A stretch of DNA of 64,000 nt from Polytrichum commune (lineage: Eukaryota > Streptophyta > Polytrichopsida > Polytrichales > Polytrichaceae). This document shows positions 54 through 56,142 of the stretch, piece by piece. A program made the translations under genes and the position numbers. Within the stretch, counting starts at the first letter, position 1, and each line of letters starts with the position of its first letter. The DNA lies in the NCBI GenBank assembly GCA_950295325.1, contig OX485807.1, positions 7,008,501-7,072,500 of the forward strand, in the 5' to 3' direction. A model generated the notes under the pieces. The model was not told where the DNA came from and searched no databases. It saw only the letters and a list, made by a program, of their open reading frames with translations.

Positions 54-80
54 GTAACTCTCCTCTGAGAATACCATTTT

Positions 81-1439: not shown

Positions 1440-1550
1440 AATGCCTCCATGTCTTTGCTTGTATCATGTGGTTCACATTTACTAATGCTTGCTTCGTTTT
1501 TGGATGTCTTTTGTTGTTGTGATTGTTGTTGTTGTTGTTCTTGCCCATAG

Positions 1551-2078: not shown

Positions 2079-2230
2079 GTGCCCTCCTCAACCCTGAACC
2101 CCTTTCTCGCTTTTGCTTTCCTTGTCTTCCGTTTGCGTGCCGTTCTCTTTACGAGCGCCCATCCCAAACCGCCCTCATTATTTTCCCCACTCCATTCCTA
2201 TTCTTATCTTCCTATGACGTTGTTTCGCAG

Positions 2231-36524: not shown

Positions 36525-36552
36525 ACCACTATATTCGTTAAATTGAGACTTT

Positions 36553-37054
36553 CTCTAGTCTCAAATTAATATATGGATCAAAGAACTTGAAGAGGCCCGA
36601 AACTATATTGTCAACAATCTCAATTATATTATATGTTCTAATATCCCAAATCTATGATGTACGGACATAAGCACATATGGTAGAGCACTCGACACCAACT
36701 TCATCAACAAAAATACATTGGGTAGAGCACTCCAAACAAGTTTCACCCAAAAAACATATAAACTGATTTCTATTATTAGCATGCACAATAGAATATAGAC
36801 ATTGCAACATACAAAGTGCATGTAATAAATGCATATTTCTTCATTCGACAATATAGTCCCAAACATAATAATAAGATGAACTTCATTTTTTTTTGAAATA
36901 TAGTAAATGGATATTCATCCAACTCCAAACAATATAGTATTCGTAAGTTCTACCCAAACTCTGCCCCAATTTTGAAGAGCACACATATGTGTAATTTATA
37001 TTGCTATAATTATGTATTAAACTATAATCATGCTAACACAATCCTACCAACTTC
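36553..37054. other. Left subterminal region of copy 2
   Basis: A/T-rich and noncoding. GGTAGAGCACTC appears twice about 41 bp apart (near 36680 and 36721), next to CCAAAC in the second case, loosely resembling the right-end repeat GGTTTGGATTGCCCTACC in reverse. A short inverted repeat GAGACTTTCTCTAGTCTC lies directly inside the TIR. Confidence 0.6.
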
Positions 37055-37865
37055 TCATTCAACGTGGGTTGCTTCTTGTGCAATCCGAGCAAGGTTGTCT
37101 TTTGCAAAAGTTATGTACTTTTGAGGGATGGACACTGATCCACTATGGTTTTTCCGTGGTTTCCATGCTATGAATATGGAATCTGTATCTACCCAAGATG
37201 GACCGTGCTCAGAATCCACCTTCCACCGAAAGTTAGGGTTTGTATCCCAGCCTGTATAATGCCGAATCACATCTTCATTCCTTGCTGTCGGTCGATAGTA
37301 CTCCACTTGTATCTGTCGAAAATGAGGGCTGGAAGTTACAAAATTGGGTTTGGACAAAGCTCTTGCCACCCACACTGGCTTTGCATATGTCTCGTCTCCA
37401 GGACGTAAAATGAGCATATAACCTTCATGACAATCCACTGCAATGCGGAAAGATGGTGGGGGACGACTACTAGCCGGCCCCACGTAATGGTCGTCCACAT
37501 CAAACTCCTCTCGAACCTCTCCATTTCCCAAAAGACTAGGCTCCGAAGCTTGCACATCGACTCGTGTTTGTGGCCAAAATCCATGCCTCAAAGTATGAGG
37601 GCTATCTTGGTGGAGGTCTGCGAAGGCGGCACGAACACGTGTCCAATAATGTATCCAACTCCCATAACGATGCCAACATGATCCGCCAACATCCGCTATT
37701 TTCAAACTCTCCCAATATTGTATGAAGCCTGATATACCTTTCAAAATATCCTCCAAATTCTTCATGGCTATTGGCTTGCAAGGCCTAGGCTCCCCATCCG
37801 GTAACATGGTCTTTCCATCCGCATCCACGCGCCACACAAGAAGACCCTCCGGCGAGCTCCAGTCT
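37055..37865 (-). pseudogene. Orphan gene of the giant TIR element (C-terminal part)
   Basis: Minus-strand frame of about 270 codons, cut at its upstream side by Gypsy 3 at 37866 and ending 0.5 kb from the left TIR. I do not recognise the family. Visible features: a segment SSPEGLLVWRVDADGK, a middle part with a mixed hydrophobic/aromatic pattern (SWIHYWTRVRAAF), and a well-structured end with GYMLILRPGDETYAKPVWVAR, then QVEYYRPTARNEDVIRHYTG and a WKVDSEHGPSWVDTDS block. The absence of stops suggests it was functional when Gypsy 3 arrived. It is transcribed away from the HAD gene. It could be the transposase end or an accessory protein; nothing in the visible part decides this. Confidence 0.6.
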
Positions 37866-38840
37866 TGTCGCGCACCTCTCCATGAGGAGTGCCCGAAACA
37901 CCATGGGCACAAGGGGGACCCCGGAGTGACACCCGGGACTTGTGGCGCCGTTGGTGAGAGGGCCCAAGTGATCCTAGTGTGGGTGAGGGCCCCGGGCGTT
38001 GGGAACGCCTCCCACCCACGAAGACTAGGAGGCACAAGGGTAAGGCCATGAGCTATGCGTAGCTCATGGCGTGGCGATTCTAGAATGCTCAAGAACACCT
38101 CAATCGGAGGTGTGAGCTAGGAGTTATGGCCATTTGAGTGGGGCGCTGTCCCGGGACAGCGCCCTGGTGCAGCAGTGCCTGGGAGTGACTCCCGGGACTG
38201 CCAAGGTTCAAAGAGGCATAACGTCCTCATAACTTGCCCGAATGGGGCAAGTGAGGAGTTCATCGGCATCTACGTGAAACGTAGATGAAGATGGAGTGGT
38301 TGGTTGTTATGATCAAACATCATACAAGGAAGTTATGATGATCTGAAGCTGCTGGGGGGTTCTAGGCCCAGCAGCTAAAGGAAAATGTCCACTTGGCCCC
38401 AACTCTTGGTAGAGAGACAAGAGGTTGGTTGACGGTGGGGTAGGGGCCCCGCGTGAAGTCCTAGAGGCTTATATGGGTGAGGTGGTGTGGCCTCACCCAC
38501 CCGAGGCCGAACGGCACGGCCTCCATGGGCTTTGGCCTATTGTGAGGCCATAGTTGCCTAGTATGCTTCGGGTTGTGGTAGTGTTGCTCCGGCAACGCGA
38601 TGATCTACATAGGATTGGACTTCCATGGATGGAAGTCCACATTGGGGAAATGGGTTACCAATTAAGGGGTGAGTCCCGAAAGCAAAGTAGGAGGGTTGGT
38701 TCCCTCCTATGAACTATTGGTCCGGGATAAGAGGAGCTATCCATTAGCATGGCGGAATGCGAAGGGTTAGCGACTCGTAACCTTTGCTAGAATTGAAAAT
38801 TGGCAAGATGGTCAAGGGGGGGCTAGCAAGGGTTGCGACA
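37866..38840 (+). repeat. 5' LTR of Gypsy 3
   Basis: 975 bp, starting TGTCGCGCACC and ending GGTTGCGACA, in plus orientation. It is slightly more diverged from the Gypsy 1 and 2 LTRs than those are from each other. Left flank AGTCT; no right partner. Confidence 0.93.
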
Positions 38841-38842
38841 CT

Positions 38843-38858
38843 TGGTATCAGAGCAGGG
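38843..38858 (+). promoter_or_regulatory. Primer-binding site of Gypsy 3 (tRNA-iMet)
   Basis: TGGTATCAGAGCAGGG two bases after the LTR, as in Gypsy 1 and 2. Confidence 0.92.
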
Positions 38859-38904
38859 TTCCAATATTTGATCTAGCACTTTGAGGTAGACATGGCTATC
38901 AAAA

Positions 38905-41676
38905 ATGCGGGTTATGATGGTGAGCCCGGGGTTTCGAAAAGGTTGTGAGGCTCAAATTGGAACAAGGATCATGTGCAAGTGGATTGTGACCATACCATTG
39001 ATTCTAATGACAATGGTGGGCATGAGGGTGGATTCGGTGAGGAAAATGGAGTGCTTTGAAAGGGCTCCCACAAACCTCGAAAAGTATTCGGGGGCTAGAA
39101 TACCGAATGCATCCGAAAGCTTGGACGGTGGTAATATTGGATTGAAATTCCAATCCAAATTGCTTAGAATGTGGTGAAGTTGGAATGGGTGCAAATGCGG
39201 CACTCAAGGCTTTTAGGCCTATGTGTGCGATTTAACCACCATAATGAATGGCACAACTAAGATTGACTAGTTGGCTAAGAAACACATCGTTTTAAATGGG
39301 GTTTCAAAAGCGGGTGGTGAATACCATGTTCAACTCCCCAAAGCTTCTTGAGCACGTATCGGGAATCTTTAAGATTCGAAGAACATTGAAGCCGATGGTC
39401 CCGAAAGGAAGTTGGGTGGCGCATCACCACAAAGTGGGTTTTAGCCGATATTGGTCCCAAAGAAATGGGCGAAAGTAGTTTGGCCCATTATACCAAGGCA
39501 AAACATAGTCGTGCCGCGGATGGAATGTTGGGAGGTGGGTTGATCCTACCAAGGCAATTCATGTTCGTGCCGCGGACAAAGTGTGAAAGGTGGCTTTGTG
39601 CTACCAAGGCAAATCATGTTTGTTCCGCGGACAAACTATTAGAAATTGGTTTTGTGGCACCAAACCAATTTGTTCCGCGGACGGAATGTTTAAAGTTGGG
39701 TTTGCGGACCAAGCCAAGCCAAGTTGCCGAGGACGGAATGTTGGACAATGGCTTTGTGGCCAAGGCTAGTAGCCTTAAGCCGAGGCCAAGTATTTTGTAC
39801 CTTGAGGCTCAAATGAATGGGAGGCTTGTCTCATGGGTTGACAAAGAGTTAAGGCATTCTTTCATGACCCCAAAGCTCACAAGGGAGTTGGGGTTTGCCG
39901 ATTGGTAGAGTGGTGAAGCCCACCAAGGTGCGGTTTGGAAAGGGCGAACCGCATGAGACAAAGGAGGCCGCGATGCATGTAACCTTTCAATGTGGGACAT
40001 TGGAATTTTGTCAAAATTTCACACCATGTGAAATAGATGAAATGCATGTCATTGTGAAGGCCGCCTTCCTTGAAACTCACATGATAGATGTGAGGTGCAA
40101 GCCGGTGTGCTTGCCGTGCATTACGATGTGTCATAATGGCAAAGAATTGAGGTTCAAATTGACAAGGACTCCTATGGTAGGAGGACCCAAGTTGAATTTG
40201 GTCTTAATGGACCAAATCAAATATGGTAAACATAATGGTCGTGGTTCAATTGGAGCAACTCCAAGGAGCGTATGGGGAGGCTAGGAAAGATGGGCCTCCC
40301 CCAAACAACATTGGACCGGTGTGATGTTGGTGAGATACAAGGATGTATTCACCAATGTGTTGCCCAAAAAAATTACCGCCAAGGAATGAAAAATAACTTT
40401 GCTCAACGAGAGATTGAGTTCTTGATGTATGTGGTGACAAAGGAAGTTGGTGGAAGAACATGAAAAATGTCAAGGCAATCCAAGAGGAGAATTGGTCTTT
40501 GACTCAAAAAAACGGCTAAGTTAGGTCATTTGTTAGCCTAGCCAACTGCTACCACCATTTCATTCAAGGTTTTTCTAAGGTTGCTAGGACCTTAGTCAAT
40601 TTGTTGAAAAAAAAAATGGCTATCCCAAGAGTGGGATGAGCCTTTTCACCAATTCTTTTGGGGAGCTTAAGACGAAGTTCTCTTCGCCGCCCGTGATCAA
40701 GTTTGCGGAGCTTGACAAATCTTTTGAGGTGCATACGGGGGCGAGTGATTTTACCATTGGTGGATGTTGATCCAAGATGGATGCCCATTGCATATGGGAG
40801 TATTAAGCTTAATGGTTGTCGAACCTTGCGCGACTTGTGAAAGAAATGGCTAACCCAAGAGTGGGATGAGCCTTTTCACCAAGTCTTTGAAGGAGCTTAT
40901 GACGACGTTCTCTTTGCCGCCCGTGGTCAAGTTCCCGGAGCTTGACAAACCTTTTGAGGTACATATGGGGGCGAGTGATTTTACTATTGGCGGATGTTGA
41001 TGATGCAAGATGGGTGGCCATTGCGTATGGGAGCATGAAGCTCGATGGTTGTCCGACCTTGTCAAACTTGTGAAAGAAATGGCTATCCCAATAGTGGCAT
41101 GAGCCTTTTCACCAAGTCTTTGGGGAGCTTAAGACCAAGTTCTCTTCGCCGCCCGTGCTCAAGTTCGCGGAGTTTGACAAACCTCTTGAGGTGCATATGG
41201 GGGTGAGTGCCTTTGCCAATGGTGGATTATGTGTAAGATGGATGGCCATTGCATATGGGAGGATGAAGCTCGATGGTTGTCAAAGAAGACAACCAACTCA
41301 TGATAAAGAATTTCTTTGCCATAGTGCATTGCTTGAAGAGGTGGCGACGCTATTTGGGGTCGCACAAAGCAAAGGTCTACATGGACAATGTGTCCTAAAA
41401 GAATTTTGACATACAAGCGCAAGTGAGCGCCAAGTCATTGTGGTGACATGATAGTTTGGCGCTTATAAAGGTGGATTTGATCCACAAACCGGACCGCGGA
41501 AATGTGGTGCCGGATGCGCGAAGTAGACCGGAAGAGTTCCAAGCAATGAGAACCATCCAAACCTTGTGGCTAATGTGTGCCGGCAAAGGAAACTTGTGAT
41601 GCAAGATACGGGAGGGGTAAATTAACTACCCCAAAGTACAAAAACTTTTAGGTGAGCTTCGCAAGAGCAAGGTGCT
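38905..41676 (+). pseudogene. Gypsy 3 gag-pol remnant
   Basis: Plus-strand pieces: gag-like (38905-39177), a Cys/Ala-rich repeat segment (39465-39790), protease region MPIGRVVKPTKVRFGKGEPH...GGPKLNLVLMDQ (39895-40284), a junction where KKNYRQGMK meets NNFAQREIEFL (about 40370-40410) marking the missing RT palm, thumb (FIQGFSKVAR-like near 40560), RNase H repeats with DKPFEVH, and an RNase H end with DNVS-type sequence near 41380. Frames shift repeatedly. Confidence 0.85.
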
Positions 41677-44400
41677 TGTGAACCCTTTGAGTGGTCCACC
41701 ACTCTGCGGGATCACTTTTAGTTAGAATGTTAGCATTAAAAGTTAGAATTGATAGGGAATTTAGGAAAAATTAGTTCATTTAGCATTTAGCCTAGAAGAA
41801 GGAAGGTCAAAATGAAACTAAGTAGTGCTAGAAGATAGCAAAGTAGAAAAAATGTGCTAGCTAGTAAAAACAACTAGCTAAGCAAATATTAGTAGATGCT
41901 AGTTATTAAGCAATTGTTAGTAGATGCTAGCTAAGCAAGTGTTAGTTTATTAGTTAGTATGAGGCACACAAGACTATTGGAGGTGTTTTACGTAAGAAGA
42001 TAAAATCGGCGTGAAGAATTTTGAAGAAAAAAAGAAAGAGAGCAAGGGGGCTACTTGCCCACTTGCCCCCTTGCCAACTCGATGGCGGAAAAATTAGAAA
42101 GATTTCTAAAGGTTTTTTGTCGGAGCCACCTCGGCGAGAGGGTGGCAACCTCAACCGGGAAAACCCCCGAGCCAAAATTTCGGGAAAGGGTTTGAAAAAT
42201 GGATCCGGTGGAGGAGGGGTCCAACCCTTTTGTGAGAGGGTTTAAAAACCCCTCCTTCCACCTTGTAGCTCTCTCTCTTTCTCTAGTTTTTGGGCGAAGC
42301 CCTACTTCAATGTAATTAGGAAAAAATCCTTTAGCATGTATTCTCAATGGTCTAAAAGAAAGGCTTGAGAACCTCCTCTACTCTCTCTCTCCTAGTTAGG
42401 TTGTGTGTTTATTAACACACCAACAAAATTATTCCTTCTTTTGTAGAGGTAGGTTGGATGGTAGAATTTTGAGTAGAGGCATTATAGACCTCATCTGCCA
42501 ATGCCCTGAAGGCTTAGTTCAAAAGCTAGAACAAGATACTTATCATTTTTCTCTTAGAGAGATTTCATATAGCTATCCATAGCCGTTTCCCATTTGTGAT
42601 TTGGTTGAGATGACAATTAGTTATGGATTTTCAAAGATGGAGTAGAAAAACTGGGTGGTCTTGTGGGTAGCGGCTGCTGGATCAGACCTGCGAGCCCAAT
42701 AGGAATTTTAATTCCAAGAAATTATATTTTTCCCAAGTAGAACTTTTGTGTAGCTTTCCAAAATGGCTTAGAACATTTGATTTGAGCATGATTTGAATTA
42801 GATATGAATTGTGCAAGATGGGACACATAGTTTGAGAACTTTTGGTTGACTGCTGCATTACAGAGGACCTGCTGGGTTCACTTCGGCTTACCTTTCTAAT
42901 CACATATTTTAATCAAATACATCTTTTTAATATCTCTCCAGGGTCATATAGAACGTTTGATTTGAATAAGATTTGAATTAGATATGAATTGTTGAAGGTG
43001 AGATACATAGTTTAAGTCTTCTTGATTGACTGCTGTGTTACAAGGAGTCTGTTGAATTTTTATTAGCTTAACCTGCTGATGTCATAATTTTTCTAGTTAG
43101 AGCTTGTTCATAGCTTTCCAATGGTATAAGGAAAGCCTAGATCCAAGTAGTAAGGAATGTGCTATGAATTTTTGAAGTTAGAAGGTAGATAGGTGGGTTG
43201 GAAGGGTCGGTTGAATCGACCTCACACTTCCAACCCTCATAACTTTTGCATTTCTTATCCGATTAGAGTGATTTTTAGATCATTGGAAAGATAATTTGGT
43301 GCACTAAGTATAAATATTATGCTTAGGATTAAATTACAGGGCAAAATAACACTTTATATTTTAATTGTTAACTAAGGTACGCTTACTACCAAACTAGTTA
43401 CAAAGAAGGAGGCAAGGTCGACGCTCGGAAAGTGGAGCAAGGAAGGAGGTAGCGGCTCGGCCTACATCAAGCCCAAATCAACCGAGGAAAATTGAGGTAA
43501 ATTAACTAATCTTAAGCCTTCCATTTAGGATTGGAGGGAGCACGGCTAAGGTACGCATTTCTAAACCCACTCACCTATCTCGTAAGGTCAAGTGGCTTGA
43601 CCACTTGACCGCCAAGGGAGTACCCAATTCCATTGTTTTCGGGGCCCTTGGTATGTTTTGTGGTAGTAGCTTCATTTATTAGCAAGTTTCGTGTGTGGTA
43701 AGTCGGATTAATCACCGGCACGACCACTCTGAATGTTGTTGGTGGAAAGGTGGGGTTAATGACCCGCGAATCCACTATTATGTTGTTGGCCCCATAGATT
43801 GGGAGTAATGGCCCCAATTTATGAAGATTGCGCAACAGGTTGAACCTACAGGTCGCCCGTCACCCTGGTCCCATTGAGTTGCATTTCGTGGTCTATCCAG
43901 TGTAAACACATTTAACAATGAAAACATACAAAATAAATCGTAAACCCTTGTTGGCAAGAGACCCGAGGTAAGGGGTGATGCCTAATATGTTAATGTAGTG
44001 AGTTAGGACGTGCAAACAAAAGTAAGTAATTAAGAAGGAATTTGTGTGAAGGGTGGGACTTAGGCCAAGTTCCCCCGCTTAGAAAACTAAATAGAACTAA
44101 ATAAAGAAATAGGAAGAATTGAATGGTCCATCAAATTGTCGTTATTCCGTTCGTTGAGTTAGGGTGGTATGAGTCACACCCGGTTGGGCGTATCAGAACC
44201 ATCCCAATTCACAAATTAGGATTGCCTTGGTTTCAAGGCTGGTGCATCTGCGCGTAGAATAGGTTGTAGGTTAAGGTTAGAACTAGATATGAAATTGGTT
44301 AGTGGAGTTTAAAGCCACACTAATAAAAAACTAAGGCCTAACCTCCGGAGGTACTACGACGCATATTTAATCTCCCTTAAAAATCTAACTACTCACGTTT
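41677..44400. other. Noncoding, LTR-like sequence between Gypsy 3 and gag B
   Basis: Starts TGTGAACCC directly at the Gypsy 3 breakpoint. A TATA-like TTTAAAAACCCC lies near 42240, followed by a CT-rich stretch, as in a plant LTR. From 42690 to 43200 a degenerate ~240-bp unit repeats, marked by GATTTGAATTAGATATGAATTG at about 42790 and 42968. From 43400 to 44400 the origin is unclear. No long ORF; no target duplication was found. Confidence 0.5.
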
Positions 44401-45600
44401 GTGGGAACCCACAAACACCAAAAGTTCCGGATTGGCGGGTTTTTGTGCCAAATCCGGATATTTCCGGGTGACCTTAGTATCGTCCAGGGATTCTGTGAAG
44501 TGTAGGAGGTCTAAAATTCTCCGTACCTGCTTATTTCTTCTTCCTTAGCCAAATTTCCGGAAATCCTAATTTCCGGATATTTGGTCTTTGGGGACATTCT
44601 TAGCCTTTTTCCGGAGGGTACCTCTCCGGATGTTATTTCTAGGTCCTCTTTATAATACTTACCCACCCCTTTACGTCTACTCTCTAGAATAATTGGTTCC
44701 TTCCGGTGAAGACGTCCTTGATAAGGTTAGAATCCGGAAACTCCCTCACAACCAATCCGGATTGATCAGGTCCGTCCTGGCAGGTCACGCAGAGAGATCT
44801 GGATTGTTTCTTGGGACCAAAGTGGCCAGAGGAGTCCGGATTCCAACCGGAGATCTAACTCGACGGGATGAGTAGGTGATCCGTACCACTTTCCGGATTA
44901 CCCCGTCCAAAGACTGTGAGACCTCTTCAGAAGGTCGGATGGCGTAAGTCCGGCACCTTCCGGATCTTGCCCAGTCCTAACGACGGCTATCTCACATGGA
45001 CGTTACCCAGGCATTCGGAACAATGAGGATCTCTTCCTACTGCACTCCGGAGGTGGCCTCCTATCGGAATCCTTACTGATCCGGACCTCTCCTTCTCCGT
45101 CCGACGGATCTGTCCGGCTACCTTTACCTTGGATTCTACTCAATCTGAGATAACTAGGCGATCCGTACCACTAATCCGGGCAGGTCCGTCTAAGGACGGT
45201 GGGACCTCTTCAGAAGATCAGATTGGCGTAAGTCCGGATTCCTTCCGGATCTCACCCAATCTTCCCAGCGGCTATCCCACCTAGACGTTACCCAACCTAC
45301 CGGATTAGTGAGGTTTCCCTCCCACTACACTCAGAGAGGATCTACAAGGCGGTAACCGGATCTGATCCGGGTCTCCTCTCTCATGTCCTATCCGGAACTC
45401 CTATCCTTCATGCCCTCCCTTTCTCTTCCACTAACGATCTTCGGGTCATTCACACACACAGCAATCAAGAGAAGTCAAGGGGTGAGAAGCAAAGACATTT
45501 ATTCGGGGTAGGAGTAACCACAATACAACAATGGAGAAGGAACCCCCCCCAAGCTCCTTATTCAGCCTTAAGTAGAGGCTCAAAAATCCCTAAACTGAGG

Positions 45601-45623
45601 GCGGCGGCCCAAGCGGCCGCCGC
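45601..45623. terminator. GC hairpin in the gag B 3' region
   Basis: GCGGCGGCC / GGCCGCCGC stem with a 5-base loop, counterpart of 28361-28383. Confidence 0.5.
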
Positions 45624-45785
45624 TCAAGAAAACCCTAACTACTCCCGGTCTCCCGGATTTCTCGGATCCAGATCCGGGTTTTCCGCTGACACTATCAAAG
45701 GAAAATTTTATTAATCGTCTTCAAAAACTCCTAAGTCCTACCTGCCTACCTCCCTTCTGCCCAATCAATCTAGCCACTCCCCTAA

Positions 45786-47858
45786 TTAAGAAGACCGGTG
45801 CTTCTTCGGAGCCGATCCCTCCTTGGAGTGACTCCCTAATCCGCTGACGGCGGATGAGCCCCCGGCCAGCGACGCCTTCTGCAGCCGCGTGAGCATCCTC
45901 CTCATGTTCGGAGACGGAGCAACCTCGTCCTCCGAATCCGCTGCCCTCTCGGTCCGTGGGGTAGCGGTCCCTGGTGTCCCGGAGACTGTCCCTGGGGTTC
46001 CGGAAGCTGTCCCCATCCGGATGCTTCGGACTGGAGAAGGATCGCTTCCGGTGCCCTGCTCCGGATTCCGTCCACCCGAGAGTGAAGTCGTCCGCGGATC
46101 CCTGTTGGAGGCCGCTCTCGAGTGTGGCGGAGGAAATGGACTCACCACTTGGCAGTCCCGTGGAGACGATGGCGAGGCGTGGGTCATAGGAGCCTTACCC
46201 CTACTCGGAGTGGCCTCCCGATCGGAAGTCTGGTGCCGGATCGGCGTCCGAGCCCTATCCGGAGTCCGGGACCTATCCGAGTTCCGCGGAACAGGGGACT
46301 GGCCCCTTCCGGATCGGACCGACCCGGTGCTCTTCCGCCTCACCTGGGGAGAACGGACCCTTTCCGGAGCCCCTCCAGAACTACCAGGCCGAGAGCCGCC
46401 TCCTTGCTGGCTGGGTCCTGCTGAGGCCGGCGGATTCTGAACCAGGGCTACTTCACCAACCACCTCGTAGAGGGTCCCGGTTGGTGACCCTGGCGGACCC
46501 GGATAGAGCACTCTCCGCGGTGTTCCGCTTGGCGGGACCACCCTCTGGATTTCCGCCAGGAGATCCTTCATCGTCCGTGAGTACTTCACGAGGATGGGGA
46601 GGGTCTGCCTGGCGGAAGCCGGTTCTCCTGACTCCATCATCCGGTCGTAGAGATGTGCCTTGTTCACGATCTCCGCCGGATGACCCACCAGCTCCCGGAT
46701 CCGGCTGAAGAGCACTGCCTGCTCCGCATGATACTTCCGGATCTCCTCACTCTTCTGACTCAGCTCCTGGGTCATAGCCGCTACCTGTGCGGTGAGGTGG
46801 GCGTTCTCCGTCTTGGCCTGCTCCAGCTCCTTCCGGTCCGCCCTCTTTGCCAATTCCCGGAGAATGTTTCCGGGTCCGCAGTCGTCCAAAGCATGGTTCG
46901 CCCCCTTGACGATGTGCTCCAGTCGGTAGTACTGGGTCTTGAGGTCCTCCATCCCCTCCTGGAACCGCTTGAATGGATTCTCCGGGAAGTCCCAAGCGGA
47001 TAGGTCCACATTTCGCCATGGGGTCTCCCGGCTGGGTCCGGCTTCCGGATGTTGGTGCGGGGGAGGGGGAGAGAGTGGCCTCGAGACGGTTGGTGGCGGG
47101 TTTCCGGGTGACGAGGGAGGTGCTTCCGGAAGAATAGGGTCGCTGGAGGTCTCCGTCTCGACGTCTCCGACTTCCGGGAGCAGCTTGTAGGTGACCTCAT
47201 CCGCCGCTATTGTGAGCAGGTCCTCCTCCTCAGCCGTGATGCAGTCGAAATGCTGGTAGAGGTGCAAAATGAAGGGGGAGAGGAAGGAGGGTTTCCGGCC
47301 AATATGGGGGAGGGCCCGTCCGACTATCTCCTGGATGATCAGGCCCCAATTCACCGGCCGGACTCCGGACATTGCACCAAACAGCGTGTTAGCCATGGTG
47401 AGGCTAATCCGCTTCGGCTTGTCCGGATTGAGAATGGGCAGGAGAAACTCTAGCACTCTCCGCTCCCTAATATTCCGGCAGTTCCCTGGGTGAAACCCGT
47501 CCTTTGGATCCACGTCCCCTCTGAATTTCCCGGCGAACAGGCCGTCGCGGCGGCCGGCCCACCCCTCCGTGATTCCCCTGGGAAACCCGTAGACCCTGTT
47601 CCACGTATCCGGAGTCCAATGTTCCGGATCCCTCCTCTTTGTGCCTAGCCACTGATTTCCCCTCTCGAATTTAAACTCGCGGAGGGTATCTTCCGCTCTG
47701 AGATTCCAGGGTTTGGAGAGCAATCCCGCACAACCCATGACCCTGAGATCCTCCGCGAGCTCCTGCAGCTCTCTATCCTCCCTCGGAATTGCAGGGGTGA
47801 GGGCTTTCAGCGGAATCGGGATGGGTTCCCGCTGATCCTCTTCCCGTACTTCCGGCAT
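45786..47858 (-). CDS. Gag-like protein of the gag-only retroelement (intact, 690 aa)
   Basis: The only long uninterrupted retroelement ORF of its family here. Residues 1-235 form a globular region: NRVYGFPRGITEGWAGRRDGLFAGKF, RERRVLEFLLPILNPDKPKR, ANTLFGAMSG-x-RPVNWG and LHLYQHFDC. This resembles the plant 'putative transposon protein' type of gag N-terminus. Then come a Pro-rich linker (about 245-290), a likely coiled coil with regular E/K/A/L heptads (about 345-400, ELEQAKTENAHLTAQV), a helix region and a Ser/Arg/Pro-rich basic tail (about 500-690) that may bind RNA. No CCHC knuckle, protease or RT is seen. Copies A and C in the window are broken versions. Expected role: particle assembly and RNA packaging. 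Confidence 0.85.
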   Translation of the reverse strand: MPEVREEDQREPIPIPLKALTPAIPREDRELQELAEDLRVMGCAGLLSKPWNLRAEDTLREFKFERGNQWLGTKRRDPEHWTPDTWNRVYGFPRGITEGWAGRRDGLFAGKFRGDVDPKDGFHPGNCRNIRERRVLEFLLPILNPDKPKRISLTMANTLFGAMSGVRPVNWGLIIQEIVGRALPHIGRKPSFLSPFILHLYQHFDCITAEEEDLLTIAADEVTYKLLPEVGDVETETSSDPILPEAPPSSPGNPPPTVSRPLSPPPPHQHPEAGPSRETPWRNVDLSAWDFPENPFKRFQEGMEDLKTQYYRLEHIVKGANHALDDCGPGNILRELAKRADRKELEQAKTENAHLTAQVAAMTQELSQKSEEIRKYHAEQAVLFSRIRELVGHPAEIVNKAHLYDRMMESGEPASARQTLPILVKYSRTMKDLLAEIQRVVPPSGTPRRVLYPGPPGSPTGTLYEVVGEVALVQNPPASAGPSQQGGGSRPGSSGGAPERVRSPQVRRKSTGSVRSGRGQSPVPRNSDRSRTPDRARTPIRHQTSDREATPSRGKAPMTHASPSSPRDCQVVSPFPPPHSRAASNRDPRTTSLSGGRNPEQGTGSDPSPVRSIRMGTASGTPGTVSGTPGTATPRTERAADSEDEVAPSPNMRRMLTRLQKASLAGGSSAVSGLGSHSKEGSAPKKHRSS

Positions 47859-48511
47859 TTTCCTCTCCTCTCACCCTTTCTGGCTTGCAACCTCTCCCTC
47901 TCTCTTCCGGAGTCCTTCTCTTCCGTCTAAGTGCCACAAAGTCCCGGCAAGCCCACTGCCGGTGACTGAAAAGTGCTGAGTCCCAGCAATCCAACTGCTG
48001 GCGGCTCGAAAGAAGGAACACCTCACCACTCGTTCTCTCAACAGGTTGCCTTTTTCCAGAAAAGAGTGTGAGGGAGAAGGAAGGGACCCTTAAATCTCCT
48101 TCCTCCCTCTTCCTTCCCCTGTTACCGTTCGGTTTAACGGAAAACGGTTACCAACCGTTTTCCGGCGGTTCCCACCAACGGTTTTACTAACATTTTCACC
48201 AACGGCTCTCTTTTCCCCCAACCGCCATAAGGCCCGTTGTAACCGCCACTTCCGGGCCGTTGGGTAATCTTGGCGCGTCCGTCACTTGGTTTGGACCATG
48301 ATTGCATGGTCCGCCCATCCTATTTGACGGACCGGTCATAGTACTTATTTAGAGTCGTTTTACCGCACAAGGCGGGGTTAGACTACTCTATTTCCTAGTA
48401 CCATTAATTTTGTCCTAATAGACCCTATTATCCTCAGATAAGCAAGGTAAAATACGGAAATTGAATCTGTATTTCCGTATTTCCGTATTTCCGTCGAATT
48501 TGGACTCCCAC
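47859..48511 (-). promoter_or_regulatory. LTR-like promoter/leader of gag B
   Basis: In gag orientation it starts TGGGAGTCCAAATTCGACGG, runs through repeated GGAAATAC words and AACGGTT-rich sequence, and reaches a TATA-like segment (TTTAAGGGTCCC near 48080-48095), about 230 bp before the ATG. Equivalents lie at 57289-57953 (copy A) and 58335-58999 (copy C), where copy A has ATATTTAAGGG. Confidence 0.65.
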
Positions 48512-48512
48512 A

Positions 48513-48530
48513 GGTCGATCGACCCAAACT
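48513..48530. repeat. Half of a P2 palindrome at the gag B junction
   Basis: GGTCGATCGACCCAAACT is the right part of a P2 dyad (arms GTTTGGGTCG / CGACCCAAAC); its left arm is missing at the gag B boundary. Confidence 0.7.
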
Positions 48531-48591
48531 GCTGTTACATTTGTTATTCCATGAGATGTTGTCTAACATGAATTGTTGGCTACGTGTGCAG

Positions 48592-49923
48592 GACTTCAAA
48601 TATCAGATGATCAATAAATTCTCCTCGATAGACAATGCTAGCCACAAGCAAAAAATATATAACGAGTTGCGAGGAGAAATATATTTGATCACCGCGTCCG
48701 ACTCCGTGTGGGGAAAATGGAGGAGTGTTTTTGAAAAACACGAGACGGGGGGCCTTATGGACCCCGACACCGGCATGCTCTTCAACCAGACTACGCGCTT
48801 CAAGCAAATGAAGCCTCTGGTGAGGGAGTTCTTCAGAGCGCTTCAAGGTCTTTCCGAGACAGAGATGGGAAAAACGGCGTCCCACATCCTACACGTGGAG
48901 ACGACGGCGAAGAGATGATGGGTCCACCCCAAGATCGTCTTCACCAAACCCAAGATCTTCGTCCCTTCATGCTACACCATGAAGGAATGGACGGAGAACA
49001 AGAAGAAGAAGACGACCATCGTCCAAGAGCTGCACAAGCTGGTGCCCGAGAAGAAGCTCATCGTGGACGGAGAGGTCGACGAGGCGCACTGGAGGGCCTT
49101 CAAAGCCGAATATAAGTTCACTAGTGCGTCCATGGCGGCACTCATGAGGGAGGCGGGAGACGACTTCCTCAGATCCAAGCTCGTGAAGGGGGGGAGGAAC
49201 CGGGTGCTTCCCGAACACTCAGCGCGGGCCTTCTCCAACTTCATAAAGGAGAAGAAGATCGTCAGTTTCGAAGGCGATGCGCAATTCAACATGGTCACCG
49301 TCGAGCCTCTCAGGATCCAAGGTTGGCCGGGCTCTGAGTCCAGGAAGGCGATCAGGACTAAAGCCGGGGACCGCTTCCCCTTCGGAATGATAGACTTCAG
49401 GAATATCCCTGGAGCCTCATTCGAGGGGACTATGAGCACCCCTTTTTACGATGCTTTCTTGTCGAAGTTCGTGGACTACGCCAGCCCCAAATTCAGGGAG
49501 GTCGACGTCTGGCTCTGGATTGTCGAGGACAGGAGGGCAGAGCAGGTTTACGAGATCGTGCGCAAATTGCAGCCGGAGTATGCCGTCTCGAAATCTCACT
49601 ACGTTGCTGCACCGGCGGAGGGGGTGTACAGCACGTTGAAAGACAAGAAGACGAAGATAGTCAACGTGTTGTGCTTGTACTTCGTGTACAAAGTTGATCT
49701 ACTTAAGGTGCCCAACCATCCTATAGCCAGGATGGAAAAGCTCTTCCAAGTCCAAGAAGGGTTGGGTACCAGCAGGAGTTTGTATGACGAGGCGAAGTAC
49801 GCCAACTACCCCGCGGATGAGCTGCACATGGAGTTCTACCTGCGGATGATGAGGACCCTCACCAAGAGAGGGGACTGCATCTTCAACGTTTTCGGGGGAT
49901 CCAAACCGATTTTTGCAGCAATG
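48592..49923 (+). pseudogene. MTase-like/HAD gene, exon with methyltransferase-like fold (copy 2)
   Basis: Opens after acceptor TACGTGTGCAG (48591) and ends at donor ATG/GTAAGC (49923/49924), phase 0, 444 codons, with one in-frame TGA at 48916-48918. The C-terminal third resembles beta-class N4/N6 amino-methyltransferases: FYDAFLSKFVDYAS and VDVWLWIVEDRRAEQVYEIV fit motifs V-VI, and ELHMEFYLRMMRTLTKRGD followed by CIFNVFGGSKPIFAAM fits the helix and motif I (usually DPFxGSGTT). Where motif IV (DPPY/DPPW) should be, the sequence is GMIDFRNIPG, so catalysis is unlikely. The N-terminal half is unrecognised and basic. The TGA could derive from CGA by one C-to-T change. Confidence 0.6.
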
Positions 49924-50205
49924 GTAAGCAAAGAACCATGAAAGCCCTATACGGACGGTTTGGGTCGAGCGATCCAAACTATGTTTGCCCCTAGTTTGGG
50001 TCGAGCGACCCAAACTGGGTATGCCCATAGTTTGGGTCGAGCGACCCAAACTGGGTATGCCCATAGTTTGGGTCAAGCGACCCAAACTGTGCATGCCCTA
50101 GATTGGGTCGCTCGACCCAAACTAACTATTCTTATTTTATTTTGGATGTCATTTTTCCTTACTCTTCATTAGTTTATACTAATACTATTGATTTGGATTG
50201 TGCAG
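49924..50205 (+). other. Intron with palindrome array
   Basis: Donor GTAAGC, acceptor TTGTGCAG. Splicing joins ...IFAAM to MSGLNIYSYVEDADVQFY, which continues the methyltransferase motif I-II spacing (a Glu/Asp acidic residue about 15 residues after motif I). More than half of the intron is the P2 array. Confidence 0.8.
49957..50123. repeat. P2 palindrome array, 36-bp period, five units
   Basis: 24-bp dyads at 49957-49980, 49993-50016, 50029-50052, 50065-50088 and 50100-50123. Arms are AGTTTGGGTCG and CGACCCAAACT with central AG, AA or CT. Linkers are 12 bp, mostly GGGTATGCCCAT, itself partly dyad-symmetric. Units differ by only a few bases. All dyads have CpG on both sides of the centre. 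Confidence 0.95.
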
Positions 50206-51310
50206 ATGTCTGGGTTGAACATCTACTCCTATGTGGAGGATGCCGATGTTCAATTTTACAGGACCCAGAAGGCACTGGCCAAGAAAATGGACATCCTTGA
50301 CTGGATACCCGGATCCTACGTTGAAGAGATAGTCGAGGGGGGTGAGAATCCTTTGGATATGGCGAGGCGAATCAACCCGGGTGAATTCGCCATGCGTGCC
50401 CCCGTTCAATTGCCAGAGCCGCTCATCGGGTTGCATCCGGGCAATCCGTCGATGGGAGCAGGTGGCGAGGTTGGGGAGGAGGAGGAGGAGGAAGCAGAGA
50501 AAGTGGAGGGGGAGGTGGAGGAAGGGGCAACAGGATTCACTCAAGAATCCGAGGCCCCTCAGCGGAAGAAGGCCATGCGGGCTGCCACGCCGCAAAGCAG
50601 GCTGGTGCCCGCGTTGACGGTGGACGACGCGAAGGACATGTACTCGAGGGACGCGACGGCCACCTTCAGGGAGCGGAGAAGGATGAAGGGGCAGAAGCTG
50701 TACGGGGACTATGCGGTGGAGGAGACAATCGCAATAAGCTCAGAGGACGAGGACGACATGGAACTCGCCAAGAGGCTGAGGTCGGATCCTGCCTCCCCCA
50801 GAGCGTTCGCCGGAAATGTGAGGGTGAAACCGGAGGTCCTCACCGTGGAGGAGGCGAACGCAAAAATGCTCCGAGACGAGGAGCAGCGTGTGCGACTGCA
50901 GAGGGCTGCCGCCGAGGAACCCTCGGTCCGCAACGAAGTCGCGGAGTTGAGGGCTCTCCTGTTGGAGCAGGAGCGGCAAAGGGCGATGGCCCAAACTCCG
51001 TCCCAAGCGGAGCTCATCACGCAAGTGATCCAGGGCATGCTGGCGCAGGGATTGGTGATGGCTCCCCCGAGTTCATTCCCGCACTTGCCCGCAGGCTTCC
51101 CGCCACAGGATATCGCCCCGCGGCCCACGCTGCAGCATTCCTTCAGCTTCGCGCAGTTGCTGCAGCCGCACGCCCGCCCTTACGCGCCCGTCTAGCAGGT
51201 GGACGACCCCAACCTTTGGCGCGTCGCCGGAGCGTCCAGCTCGTTGGCGCCCCCGCCGCTCCGGCCTCCCATCCTCTCACCCCCACAACACCAGCGGGAC
51301 GACCCCCACA

Positions 51311-51403
51311 TGTTTGGGTCGTCCGACCCAAACAGTGCCCACGTTGCAGCGTCCCAGAGCGACGCTCGCCAAGCAGCAGGGTTTGGGTCGGCCGACCCAA
51401 ACC
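51311..51403. repeat. Two P2 palindromes within coding sequence
   Basis: Dyads at 51311-51334 (centre TC, arms TGTTTGGGTCG/CGACCCAAACA) and 51380-51403 (centre GC). In frame they encode FGSSDPN and FGSADPN. A degenerate half-site lies near 51201-51215. Confidence 0.9.
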
Positions 51404-51769
51404 CCGTCCCCGACCAGACCCCGGTGGACGAGGGCATGTTAGACGTTGAAGCACTAGTAGAAAATTTTGCGTCCGGATCAACAAAAAAGTGTTGGTCGCG
51501 GTTGTTACTTAGGACGCGTTGACCTGGACACTCTGTAACACGGTTTTGTTGATCTGTTCTGTTGATCTGGTCATCAAAAGTTTATCAACAAAAATAAAAA
51601 TAAAAATCAATTTTTTTACTTTCCGGATTTTCCGGAAAATTTTATTTTTTACGGCCTGGATGTTCGGGCAAAAAAAATTAATTTCAGACTACTACCACAG
51701 CACAAACTACGTCCCCATCAACTCCAACATACTCGCCTAGGCTTGCTAGGCTAGGCTAGAGGTCATAGT

Positions 51770-51845
51770 TGCGGGCCAAGGGATTGGAACCCCCAACCTT
51801 GGGCTTCCCACTTGGTGGTTCTAACCACCAAGTCAACACACTTTC
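51770..51845 (-). repeat. tRNA-related (SINE-like) segment
   Basis: On the minus strand the order is GGTGGTTAGAACCACC (box A-like, about 51813-51832), then GGTTGGGGGTTCCAATCC (box B-like, 51781-51800). Spacing is short for a tRNA and no cloverleaf with matching acceptor arms is evident, so a SINE head or tRNA pseudogene is more likely than a tRNA gene. Confidence 0.45.
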
Positions 51846-51884
51846 TTGATATAAAGGGAGTGCTTTAAACCCTTTTATAGTGCA

Positions 51885-52870
51885 CCCTCCATAAATGTTA
51901 CACCTATAAGTGTAAACCCTCTCTAAATGTTAACTTTCTTCTACTCCCCACATATTGCACACTATAAATGTTAAACGTGTTAATTGTTAACAAAATGGTA
52001 CTCCCTTCTTTGTAAATTTAACTTTATAAATGTTAACAAATGAAATACAACCATGAGGTGGATGATAAAGACTACACATTCAATTACCAAAGAACCATTG
52101 ATTCATACTTCACCCATGATTTGTAAACTTGATATTGAAATAAAGTTTTAATTGGGTTTGCAATTTTATGAATGGTATTCTCTCACAAGCACTCTTCACA
52201 ATTGCTTATATTTATAAATGTTAAGATTTGTATATTGCTCAAAAAAATAATTTTATGATTGTTAGATGTTAACACCTTTATAAATGTTAACTTTGATCCA
52301 CTCCCGGAGGTTAACATTTATAGAGGGTAGATTGTATGTGAGGAACACTTCAAACCTATTTACAATATATTTTGATATATACTATTTAAATAAATTCTTA
52401 GTATATACGTATATCCTAAAATAGATTATTTATGTATATTATGAAATATACTATTTATGTATTTTTTGACACATACTATTTACGTATATTTTGACATGTT
52501 CTATATACATATATTCTGAAATGTAGTATTTACATATATTCTAAAATATAATATTAACATATCTTCAAAAATATACTAAAAATAATATATTGCAAGTTAT
52601 ACTATAAATAATGTATTTCAGAATACACTATTTATAGTATAATATATCATATCATATTTTTAATATATTGCAGATTGTACTATTTATAGTATATTTTAAA
52701 CTATACTATTTTAAGTATATTACAGATTATACTATTTATACTATGTTATGTAATATACTATTTATACTTTATTATGTAATATACTATTTATAATATAATC
52801 TGTAATATACTATTTATAGTATACCCTGCACTATATTATTTATAGTATAATCTGCAATATATTATTTACA
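51885..52870. repeat. A/T-rich repeats inside the CACTA MITE
   Basis: About ten copies of (T)ATAAATGTTAAC between 51890 and 52330, then some fifteen copies of (A)TATACTATTTATAGTATA-like words between 52370 and 52870. The second motif is a dyad. No coding. Confidence 0.8.
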
Positions 52871-53368
52871 GTATTTAGTAGTATTCAAGATTCCAAAAGA
52901 TTTCAAAATACTCGAAATTTTTTCCAAAAGGATAATGGAATATTCTAAAGATTCTAATTTTGTGTGAGTTTTGTTGATTTGGCCATTGTACTACTCGAAT
53001 CAACAAAAAGTAGGCACCAAACTGTTGGTTTTGGCAAGAAGTTACAAATTCAGTGAAATAGGTCATTGCAGTGCCCAAATCAACACAAATCTGTTGATTT
53101 TCAGTTGATTTGGTCATGATTTTCTAGTAGTGAAGGCCCGCAAGGGCCTGGTGATACCTCTACTCCTAACCCAGTCGATGAACCAATGCATGATGCGCAT
53201 GCGGAGGTTGGGTTGGGACAAAGGCCTGACAGTCAGCCTTTGCAGGAGCAGGTTGCGGCTGACGTCGTCGTCGGAGGCGGCGGTGACAGAGGTGGGGCAG
53301 CGCAGGCGATGCCGGCATCAACGTCGTCAAGGCACGACCAAGGTGAGGTAATGCACTGACCCCACTCA

Positions 53369-53390
53369 ATTTGGGTCGGTCGACCCAAAC
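53369..53390. repeat. P2 palindrome in the intron before the HAD exon
   Basis: ATTTGGGTCG and CGACCCAAAC around GT, 21 bp after the donor at 53348. It holds the same gene position as the P1 cluster of copy 1. Confidence 0.9.
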
Positions 53391-53858
53391 TCCATGGGTC
53401 TTTGTCTTCTTGCCTTGGTCGTGTCCCCTAGCTACCCTAAACTCACACACACGTCGCCCCCCCGGCACTCGCGCCCTTCGCCACATCCCCCCGACCATTC
53501 GTTCGTCCACCTACCCCGGCTTGCGACGAAGTCTTCATCACGGCGGCCCGTCTCTTCAAATTTTCTTAGACTTAGAAGTAGGCTAGTTTGAACGCATCGT
53601 TCAACGCGGCTCCCCCCAATCAAAATGTACATAGAGCATTGTATACAATACAATCACCATTTTTGACTCCTATATACTTGTATATTGTGTTTGAATGTAT
53701 TTTGTATGCTCTTGTCTCTCTTGTATCCCTTGTTGCACCCCCTCCAAAATGAATCAATTGGTTTTGTGTTTGCACCAAGAACATTCGTTTCCTTAATGCT
53801 TCGTTTGGACATAGCATGACATAAGTCGCCCACCGTTTTCTCTCGATCGTATCCGCAG

Positions 53859-54671
53859 GGCTCGGAGCATAGCGTAGCGGCTCCCCGACGCTCTTCTCCA
53901 AGGAGCGCAGAGGGCAGCACGGCGGCCCCCCCGGTTTTACCCGCCCCGCCCCCGCTGCCGAAGAAACGATTCCTGGTGTTAGACCTGAACGGTGTCCTCG
54001 TGCAGTGCGTTCATTGCCCTAGGGCCCCCACAGTGCCCTTTTGCAAGCCCGAGGACGCTAATTACGACGGGCCGCCCACGTTCATAAAAAGCAAGCTAGT
54101 TCACCTCCGCCCGTGGCTTCGGACCTTCCTCCAGATCGCCCAACAACGATGGTGGGTGGTCGTGTGGAGCTCCATGACGACCGAGAACACCAATGCGGTC
54201 GTGGAGTTCATCTTCAAGGGCATCGAACCCCCCTGCATGGTCCTAGCACAGGAAGCCTGTAGAATATTGTACACACAGGACGGCAAAGTCGTCAAAAAAC
54301 CAAACAACCCCGCTTCCCCCCAATACCTCAAGGTCTTGAAGCCCATTTTTTGGGACCAGCGACCGTCCTTGATAGGCGTCCCCTACGACGTCCGCCCCAC
54401 CCGCGAGAACACGCTCATGGTGGACGACAGCGCCGCAAAGAACATGTTGAACCCGACGGCCAACTTCATAGTGTGCCCTACGTGGACGGTCGAGAAGGTC
54501 CGGGACCGATTTTTGTTAGACCTTAGTAAATACCTCCAGGCGCTCTGGGGAAGCGGACTTCCCGTAAACAATTTTGTTAGGAATAATCCCATAGGCGAGA
54601 GATACTTGGATCCACGAGACCATTTGTACAGAGAGTTGTTATCTCACGCGAAATTTAACAAGCTCATTTGA
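53859..54671 (+). CDS. FCP1/NIF-type HAD phosphatase-like exon, copy 2
   Basis: Acceptor TATCCGCAG (53858) to TGA 54669-54671, 270 codons, uninterrupted. A Pro-rich lead-in precedes LPKKRFLVLDLNGVL (motif I). Further blocks are WVVVWSSMTTEN (motif II region), NTLMVDDSAAKNMLNPTANF (motif IV region) and FVRNNPIG. As in copy 1, the second Asp of DxD is Asn, so the nucleophile is kept but the general acid is not. NIF-domain HADs act on phosphoproteins such as the RNA polymerase II tail, or are inactive scaffolds. It is phase-compatible with the exon ending at 53347, so it is probably the C-terminus of the MTase-like fusion. Both copies stop after the same KLI tripeptide. Confidence 0.82.
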   Translation, partial: GSEHSVAAPRRSSPRSAEGSTAAPPVLPAPPPLPKKRFLVLDLNGVLVQCVHCPRAPTVPFCKPEDANYDGPPTFIKSKLVHLRPWLRTFLQIAQQRWWVVVWSSMTTENTNAVVEFIFKGIEPPCMVLAQEACRILYTQDGKVVKKPNNPASPQYLKVLKPIFWDQRPSLIGVPYDVRPTRENTLMVDDSAAKNMLNPTANFIVCPTWTVEKVRDRFLLDLSKYLQALWGSGLPVNNFVRNNPIGERYLDPRDHLYRELLSHAKFNKLI

Positions 54672-54814
54672 GACAGTACGTGTGTTTGTATGTGTGTGTG
54701 TGTATATGCGCCTGCCCATTTTGTGTAATTTACGCTTCATATGTATCTTGATTTTCACGCGCTCTATCTCCCCCCTTTTCCTTGGGTTTTGTTTTGTTCC
54801 AATTTTGACTCCAG

Positions 54815-55168
54815 CGTTTGGAGCCCTCTATTGACGTCGTCAGCGAGTCAGACTTGGGGAGCTTCTTCTACGAGACCGTTTACGACGCCGCGTCAACCAT
54901 CGACTACTCCAAGGAGCCTCTTGACGCCGGCGTCGTCGATAGCCCCCCACCCAAGCAAATCTTCCGGCGATCTGCGTCCCCGTCACCGCTCAAAGGCATA
55001 AATCGCAAATGCGTCCGGACATCCCCCTCTCGGCCCGGCGGCAGTAGTACACCTCAACGGCGGCTGCGGATGGACGCTCGGCCTACGAAGAGTGGAACCC
55101 TTCCTATTCCTTTGCGGGATGCCTTGCCCCTCCTCGCCAACTCCGACGGGAACGCCCCCGGTGACAAG
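54815..55168 (+). CDS. Ser/Pro-rich exon downstream of the HAD gene, copy 2
   Basis: Acceptor TTTTGACTCCAG (54814), donor AAG/GTGAAC (55168/55169), both phase 0. Shares with copy 1 the order DAAS-x-(I/V)-DYS, GVV-x-SPPP, SPSPLK and a basic RRLRMD block. No known domain. The preceding HAD exon ends in a stop, and no conserved donor was found in it, so this exon may start a separate transcript. Confidence 0.65.
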
Positions 55169-55306
55169 GTGAACCCCCCCCAACCCCCCCAAAAAGCATG
55201 GTTATCCGCGCATTACAATCATTTTGCACTTAAAAAATGAACGTGTGACACGTTTGGGTCTTCCTCCCTAAACTAACACATGTGTTCTTGCGTTGACGCG
55301 TTGCAG

Positions 55307-55594
55307 GTTGCTCCCACCCGTAAACCTATGCGGTCTAGTGCGTCCATCGAGTTGGAGCGTTTCTACTCCATGACCAGAAATGCAAGACAGTCCACTTCAT
55401 CGTATTCGAATTCTTCGTCGTATAATTCGGGCGGCCGACGGAATACAAAATGTGTTATTGATGGCGTTCACCCCAAGAATGGCTATAGTCGCGGGGCGGA
55501 GATTTTCAGGAATGTTGAAGCAATGCGAGCAAAAGAAGCTGCAGCAAAAGAAAAAAAAGCAAAAGAAAAAGAGGTAGTATCCGAGGCTAGATAG
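55307..55594 (+). CDS. C-terminal exon of the Ser/Pro-rich protein, copy 2
   Basis: Acceptor GCGTTGCAG (55306) to TAG 55592-55594. Contains SSYSNSSSYNSGGR, GYSRGAEIFRNVEAM and a Lys/Ala/Glu helix (KEAAAKEKKAKEKE). It matches copy 1 in order and spacing. The end lies about 550 bp from the right TIR. Confidence 0.65.
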   Translation, partial: VAPTRKPMRSSASIELERFYSMTRNARQSTSSYSNSSSYNSGGRRNTKCVIDGVHPKNGYSRGAEIFRNVEAMRAKEAAAKEKKAKEKEVVSEAR

Positions 55595-56142
55595 GCCATA
55601 GTAGGCGTAGGGTTTTGGGCCATAGGCAAGAACATTTTGGGTCGCACTATCCAATGCATGTGTGGTGTTAGCATGATATGCATTTTACATGCCACACTTT
55701 GTATGTTTTTTTTTGCAATAATACAAGTTAGACATGATTTCCCCTTCCATATGGTCTAAGGTTTGGATTGCCCTACCTAAACCATCACAAATATGAGTTT
55801 GGAATATTTTGTATGCAATATTATATTGGTTAACATATTAACCCTTCAATAAGATCTATGGTTTGGATTGCCCTACCTAAACCATATTCATACAAGCTCT
55901 AATATTTTGTGTGCAATAATATGAATGTTTTAAGGTTTCCCCTTAAATGTGGTCTAAGATTTGGATTGCCCACCCTAAACCATCAAAAATATGAGTTATT
56001 TATGGGGTTCTTGGTCTAAACACCTGCTTCAAAGTGTTCGCATCTTACAACTTTCTCCAATATGTGTTCCATTTATCCTTGTTCTTATTTATGTGAATGT
56101 CTCAAAATGCCCAAAAAGTCTCAATTTAACGAATATAGTGTT
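55595..56142. repeat. Right subterminal repeats and TIR of copy 2
   Basis: Three ~100-bp tandem units start near 55741, 55840 and 55938; each contains GGTTTGGATTG-CCC-(T)ACC(T)AAACC, a decayed dyad of the P2 type (55760-55783, 55860-55883, 55958-55981). Further degenerate P2-like dyads lie at 55252-55273 and 55635-55654. The TIR is 56113-56140, followed by TT and the CACT duplication. Confidence 0.85.

What the first reader, a model, noticed from the sequence alone, without database searches (positions are those of the whole stretch)
36525..56142. Undescribed giant TIR transposon with cargo genes and a 4-bp target duplication
Termini at 36525-36552 and 56115-56142 are inverted repeats. The interrupted gag A gene gives an exact empty site, with CACT duplicated at 36521-36524 and 56143-56146. 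Copy 1 (right end at 2943) has the same TIR cores and the same HAD and downstream exons in the same order. The outermost CACTA would suggest En/Spm, but En/Spm makes 3-bp duplications, no tnp2 is inside, and the cargo is unlike any CACTA I know. The 19.6 kb includes about 9.6 kb of later insertions (Gypsy 3, gag B, MITE), leaving roughly 10 kb native.
Basis: partly seen in the sequence, partly recalled or inferred. Interest (0 to 1): 0.92.

Follow-up and report, generated by a model that had tools for sequence, protein, structure and literature searches.

The report
Giant moss transposon with methylase-like cargo
This is a damaged copy of a very large jumping gene, one of many in what is probably a moss genome, whose intact relatives carry their own unusual transposase plus one long fused protein resembling a disabled DNA-methylating enzyme, a combination that may show how giant transposons escape or exploit host control.

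Summary
The element is real. Its ends are AACACTATATTCG..., and 30 of 31 paired ends examined (30 genomic pairs plus the window copy) have an exact 4-bp target duplication; none fits 3 bp outside CACTA. The 26-bp core occurs 802 + 805 times in the genome, control 0; 21 of 34 pairs on contig C1 span 14-19 kb. The window copy is a wreck: about 7.3 kb native, 12.3 kb inserted, roughly 9.3 kb of native DNA missing, which is why no transposase was seen; only its C-terminal end survives (37055-37868). Less damaged relatives encode a 983-aa DUF7869 protein with a predicted RNase H/integrase core and invariant Asp positions, and one spliced 1649-aa protein: ParB-like motif, methyltransferase-like domain without catalytic motifs, HAD domain with Asn for the second catalytic Asp. 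Copy 1 is a second 17.9-kb family with the same genes at 27-63% identity and its own 4-bp duplication. A DDD-type transposase with 4-bp duplications in moss points to the Sola superfamily, unproved. En/Spm is not supported. The fused, apparently inactive cargo under purifying selection is the new part.

The parts
36521..36524 (.). Left copy of the 4-bp target duplication CACT
   Evidence: Sequence; single CACT in the empty site at 46713-46716
36525..36552 (+). Left terminal inverted repeat, ACCACTATATTCGTTAAATTGAGACTTT (30 of 31 left ends begin AA, this one AC)
36520..37868 (+). Native left arm, 97.5% identical to the copy L012
   Evidence: 20 copies compared
37055..37868 (-). C-terminal remnant of the DUF7869 transposase gene, cut at 37868 by inserted LTR sequence; the catalytic core is missing here
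   Evidence: ORF 37055-38116 ends like the 502-aa exon of L012; DUF7869 in L012; junction
37869..48512 (.). 41677-44400 within it was not identified.
   Evidence: exon A has no match in the window
48592..49923 (+). Exon B, methyltransferase-like domain; one in-frame TGA at 48916-48918, where 32 of 32 aligned relatives have an amino acid (C in 18)
   Evidence: genome row C5:7057092-7058423 '1 TGA'
50206..51451 (+). Exon C, first part: end of the methyltransferase-like domain and acidic/proline-rich linker; a stop at 51193-51195
51452..53130 (.).
   Evidence: Absent from L048, where the exon is continuous
53131..53347 (+). Exon C, last part
   Evidence: tblastn of exon C residues 422-493
53859..54668 (+). 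Exon D: NIF/FCP1-type HAD phosphatase domain, in frame with exon C by splicing in L048; second catalytic Asp is Asn (DLNGV)
   Evidence: Pfam PF03031 E 3.5e-15 for ORF 53820-54668; exon start; splice model
54809..55594 (+). Two further ORFs downstream of the HAD stop, also present in L048; similar coding-looking stretches follow the HAD in copy 1; gene model not settled
56115..56142 (-). Right terminal inverted repeat
56143..56146 (.). Right copy of the 4-bp target duplication CACT
1..2943 (+). Right end of copy 1, a second family with all five coding parts (C5:6993565-7011443); holds its exon D (672-1436) and the right TIR; followed by target duplication ACCA

Best explanation
The feature is a decayed, probably non-autonomous copy of a giant (mostly about 14-18 kb) cut-and-paste DNA transposon, most likely a member of the Sola superfamily (DDD transposase, 4-bp target duplication). 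Shown: inverted ends AACACTATATTCG..., 4-bp duplications, about 1,600 ends in the genome, and two genes reading away from each other towards the two ends. Gene 1 (left, minus strand) encodes a DUF7869 protein of 983 aa predicted to have an RNase H/integrase core with invariant Asp positions; inferred: it binds the 28-bp ends, cuts them and joins them to target DNA with a 4-bp stagger. Gene 2 (right, plus strand) encodes one 1649-aa protein made of a ParB-like motif, a domain with the predicted fold of N6-adenine/N4-cytosine DNA methyltransferases but without their catalytic motifs, and a HAD phosphatase-like domain with a changed catalytic Asp. Inferred: this is a non-catalytic DNA- and chromatin-binding accessory protein that protects the element (anti-silencing decoy) or guides the transposition complex. 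The cargo is a constant part of the element, because two families whose proteins share only 27-63% identity carry it in the same order.
Confidence: 0.75

Rival explanations
1. A CACTA (En/Spm) element that lost its tnp2 gene, with the two outer bases and 4-bp duplication being an accident of this copy.
For: The TIR core reads CACTA...TAGTG. Genuine tnp2 (PF02992) genes exist elsewhere in this genome (150 scored of 643 candidates).
Against: 0 of 31 pairs fit a 3-bp duplication outside CACTA, 30 of 31 fit 4 bp outside AACACTA. tnp2 hits (150 scored of 643 candidates) lie in 1 of 34 C1 pairs, a 42.9-kb span that may be a false pair. No PF02992 match in either gene product at E <= 10. The 41 residues between the second and third Asp hold no C(2)C pair, which PMC12730594 describes for EnSpm transposases together with H(3-4)H (passage read).
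Confidence: 0.03
2. A superfamily of its own: DUF7869 transposases form a clade outside Sola and all named superfamilies.
For: Pfam catalogues DUF7869 only as a domain of unknown function, and no paper in the library holds the word DUF7869 (0 papers).
Against: DDD catalytic pattern, 4-bp duplication, size that can exceed 15 kb and presence in moss all match the description of Sola in PMC10741241; PMC9033089 lists Physcomitrella Sola1.
Confidence: 0.25
3. The methyltransferase-like and HAD parts are host genes captured by chance and carried passively.
For: Giant transposons often pick up host genes (general knowledge). 27 of 95 scored exon B copies carry stops (my count of the table).
Against: The same fused gene in the same order in two families at 27-44% identity, flanked by the same type of ends; dN/dS about 0.1-0.15; 68 of 95 scored exon B copies without a stop (the scored set is the most similar part of 1236 candidates, so it may favour intact copies).
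Confidence: 0.12
4. Gene 2 is an active DNA methyltransferase (adenine or cytosine-N4) that marks the element.
For: Predicted fold and order of parts resemble beta-class enzymes such as M.MboIIA, RsrI and CcrM.
Against: Where I place the catalytic DPPY motif, 33 of 33 aligned sequences read otherwise (DFRN in 28); where I place motif I, 32 of 33 read FGGxK in place of a G-rich loop (motif names and places recalled or inferred). Copy 1 reads DFRG and CGGSK there.
Confidence: 0.1

Closest known systems
Sola superfamily (Sola1 in Physcomitrella; Sola2 in Dictyostelium)
   Same: DDD transposase, 4-bp target duplication, variable TIRs, some elements over 15 kb, present in moss (PMC10741241 passages; PMC9033089 table row). 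Sola2 of Dictyostelium also carries extra genes (Fanzor1) and has AT-rich 4-bp duplications (PMC3627910 passages).
   Different: No published Sola with a ParB-like/methyltransferase-like/HAD fusion appeared in the listings of my searches. Sequence homology to a Sola transposase was not tested.
CACTA / En-Spm
   Same: Inner TIR motif CACTA...TAGTG; tnp2 genes coexist in this genome.
   Different: Two further bases outside, 4-bp instead of 3-bp duplication, other transposase.
TET/JBP-carrying fungal DNA transposons (Kyakuja, Zisupton, Plavaka, EnSpm and others)
   Same: Several transposon lineages carry an enzyme that acts on DNA methylation, proposed there to help escape silencing (PMC12730594, abstract and passages).
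   Different: Here the cargo is a methyltransferase-like protein, apparently without catalytic residues, not a dioxygenase.
Virus-borne Mariner elements with endonuclease and DNA methyltransferase (PMC3627910)
   Same: Transposon with a methyltransferase gene (passages).
   Different: Mariner transposase, separate genes, methyltransferases with recognisable domain matches.

Membership tests
Sola superfamily | 4-bp target site duplication | tested here: met
   30 of 31 paired ends; copy 1 too
Sola superfamily | DDD-type RNase H transposase | tested here: met
   Asp 305, 308, 430, 472 invariant in 38 of 38 sequences; RNase H-like order of strands in the model and integrase/transposase matches. 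Catalysis itself not tested.
Sola superfamily | Sequence homology to Sola1, Sola2 or Sola3 reference transposases | not testable with these tools
   No Repbase held; the founding paper is not in the library
CACTA / En-Spm | Termini beginning with CACTA at the very end | tested here: not met
   Two bases lie outside CACTA: AA in 30 of 31 left ends, TT in 31 of 31 right ends
CACTA / En-Spm | 3-bp (2-3 bp) target duplication | tested here: not met
   0 of 31 with 3 bp, 0 of 31 with 2 bp directly outside CACTA
CACTA / En-Spm | tnp2 transposase (PF02992) | tested here: not met
   No match in either gene product; 1 of 34 C1 pairs spans a scored hit
Beta-class / MT-A70-type DNA methyltransferase | Rossmann-type methyltransferase fold | tested here: inconclusive
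Beta-class / MT-A70-type DNA methyltransferase | Catalytic D/N-PPY/W motif and SAM-binding FxGxG motif | tested here: not met
   At the places inferred: DFRN in 28 of 33 and no DPPY; FGGxK in 32 of 33; copy 1 DFRG and CGGSK. Motifs recalled from general knowledge
ParB-like / DGQHR domain | Significant profile match | tested here: not met
   No ParB match in Pfam or NCBIfam for 26 proteins; one weak PHROG ParB hit, E 0.28, in one relative. Motif LIDGQHSVEA only.
NIF/FCP1-type HAD phosphatase | Pfam NIF domain over its cut-off | tested here: met
   PF03031, 56.5 bits, cut-off 21.8
NIF/FCP1-type HAD phosphatase | DxDx(T/V) catalytic motif | tested here: not met
   DLNGV in window, L048 and copy 1; motif recalled

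The most novel reading that the evidence does not exclude
Moss genomes host an ancient group of giant transposons whose second gene is a permanently inactivated ParB-methyltransferase-phosphatase fusion, kept by selection as a DNA-reading decoy that shields these 17-kb elements from silencing or directs their insertion; the DUF7869 transposase would found its own superfamily or a deep new branch of Sola.
Probability: 0.3. Interest if true: 0.85.

Novelty: new variant of a known kind. Interest (0 to 1): 0.7.

Why it matters
It gives a likely function to a domain of unknown function (DUF7869) that occurs in moss proteins: a transposase making 4-bp duplications. Annotation tools that look for CACTA...TAGTG could misfile these large elements as En/Spm. 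The conserved, apparently inactive methyltransferase-like fusion raises a testable question: why a transposon would keep a dead DNA-modifying enzyme for so long. Nearly identical copies with open frames exist, so transposition and anti-silencing could be tested in a laboratory moss.

Tried and rejected
Looked for relatives of the methyltransferase-like exon in viral contigs: 25 stretches matched patterns, none a relative. Searched PDB sequences with the exon B ORF, the HAD ORF and profiles of exons B and A: nothing meaningful. Pfam and NCBIfam scans of exon A and exon B families gave only chance-level hits. PHROGs gave one weak ParB hit in one relative; phage tblastn of that relative found nothing. 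A viral structure library gave no significant relative of the transposase, best E 0.039. An origin of gene 2 from a phage or giant virus is therefore not supported, nor excluded. One homolog of exon A is filed under a cyanobacterium MAG (P0211); I take it for eukaryotic DNA in a soil bin, without proof. Named moss proteins appeared for the transposase but not for exons A and B; those two searches admit only proteins of 0.55-1.75 times the query length, so a long annotated fusion would have been missed.

Full report
WHERE IT IS. The window lies on contig C5 of a 408-Mb genome in 64 contigs. Six large contigs have listed lengths of 42-78 Mb and a seventh, C4, reaches at least 57.9 Mb. Named relatives of the element's transposase come from the mosses Ceratodon purpureus and Physcomitrium patens, so the host is probably a moss (inference).

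THE OBSERVATION. The 26 inner bases of the two ends are a perfect inverted repeat (36527-36552 against 56140-56115). Two more bases belong to each end: AC on the left, TT on the right. CACT flanks both (36521-36524, 56143-56146). A gag relative in the same window shows the site before insertion, with a single CACT at 46713-46716.

MORE THAN CHANCE. The 26-bp core with up to 2 mismatches occurs 802 times forward and 805 times reverse in the genome; the reversed pattern, a control, gives 0 and 0. The first 100 places are listed. On contig C1 I formed 34 head-to-head pairs from that list; 21 span 14-19 kb, one is 4.8 kb and twelve are 22-44 kb; the median is 17.4 kb. I fetched the flanks of 29 of these 34 pairs and of 1 of 3 pairs on C2. 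Counting outward from AACACTA, 29 of these 30 pairs and the window element have an exact 4-bp duplication, 30 of 31; none extends to 5 bp, and no pair has a 3-bp duplication next to CACTA. Crossing left and right flanks of different copies gives 12 of 930. The duplicated sequences are AT-rich but varied. The one exception differs by one base.

SELECTION. Between L048 and the window copy dN/dS is 0.116 over 443 codons of exon B and 0.151 over 382 codons of exon C, and 0.096 over 270 codons of exon D (that script stopped with an error after these lines). This is one pair of copies. Of 1236 candidate places for exon B in the genome 95 were scored, at 90% identity or more; 27 of the 95 contain stops by my count. 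Fifty-four relatives of part of exon B and 47 of exon A exist in public data, nearly all without an informative name.

A SECOND FAMILY. Copy 1, whose right end is in the window, begins at C5:6993565 and ends at 7011443. Its flanks both read ACCA, an exact 4-bp duplication. It holds the transposase (57 and 63% identity in two pieces), exon A (35%), exon B (37.5%), exon C (27%) and exon D (44%) in the same order and orientation. The changed catalytic places are shared: DFRG, CGGSK and DLNGV. So the cargo is an old, constant part of these two families, and its loss of catalytic motifs is old too.

THE WINDOW COPY. Only 36520-37868, 48513-51451 and 53131-56142 match L012 or L048. The block 37869-48512 is foreign, and roughly 9.3 kb of native DNA expected there (most of the transposase, a minisatellite spacer, exon A) is missing. 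A 1.68-kb insertion splits exon C (51452-53130). Exon B has a stop at 48916, exon C one at 51193. This copy cannot make either protein whole; it could at most be moved by others.

CLASSIFICATION. The genome also has true tnp2 genes (PF02992; 150 scored of 643 candidates), but only 1 of 34 C1 pairs spans such a hit, a 42.9-kb span; DUF7869 hits lie in 7 of 34, at one end, although only 150 of 1491 candidates were scored. Sola transposons are described as encoding a DDD transposase, making 4-bp duplications, being mostly 2-9 kb but sometimes over 15 kb, and occurring in Physcomitrella (PMC10741241, passages read; PMC9033089, table row). That fits. The founding Sola paper is not held, and no reference sequence could be compared, so membership is likely, not shown.

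MECHANISM. Shown: ends, duplications, gene content, order, selection in one pair. Inferred: DDD chemistry with a 4-bp stagger; gene 2 as a non-catalytic DNA-binding accessory. Precedents: transposons that carry DNA-methylation enzymes, proposed to escape silencing (PMC12730594, abstract and passages), and Sola2 elements with extra genes (PMC3627910, passages). My preferred reading is anti-silencing or decoy, at perhaps 40%; targeting of the transposition complex is the main alternative.

NOVELTY. Searches of an open-access full-text library for DUF7869 (0 papers), giant moss transposons, ParB plus methyltransferase plus transposase, moss transposable elements, transposon-borne methyltransferases and Sola listed no description that I recognised of this element or this cargo; I saw titles, abstract starts and the passages named above, not whole papers, and long result lists were cut to 10-20 rows.

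CHECK.

Noticed in passing
window 51452-53130: A 1.68-kb insertion in exon C with strong internal inverted repeats (52404-52884) and ends reading CACTAGTAGAAAAT / GATTTTCTAGTAGTG; looks like a MITE or foldback element.
   Followed up: partly
L027 position 477 (C5:2463100-2473000): A second element end, CACTATATTCGTTAATCGGAGACTTT preceded by AA, lies 433 bases inside a copy of the first family; the same end type as copy 1, so one family may have inserted into the other.
   Followed up: no
genome, e.g. C2:3679358 and many others: Another DUF7869 group with open frames of 692 aa occurs in many places with nearly the same score; perhaps a further transposon family.
   Followed up: no
window 49958-50124; L012 3786-5196: Minisatellites in introns and spacers translate as repeats such as GFGSxDPN, VWVGRPKP and LGRSTQT in different frames; similar stretches occur at the ends of relatives from metagenomes.
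   Followed up: no
window 4210-6137 and 13405-13558: Tandem and inverted repeat arrays outside the element.
   Followed up: no
P0211: A protein filed under an uncultured Synechococcales cyanobacterium is a distant relative (28%) of exon A; possibly eukaryotic DNA in a misassigned bin.
   Followed up: no
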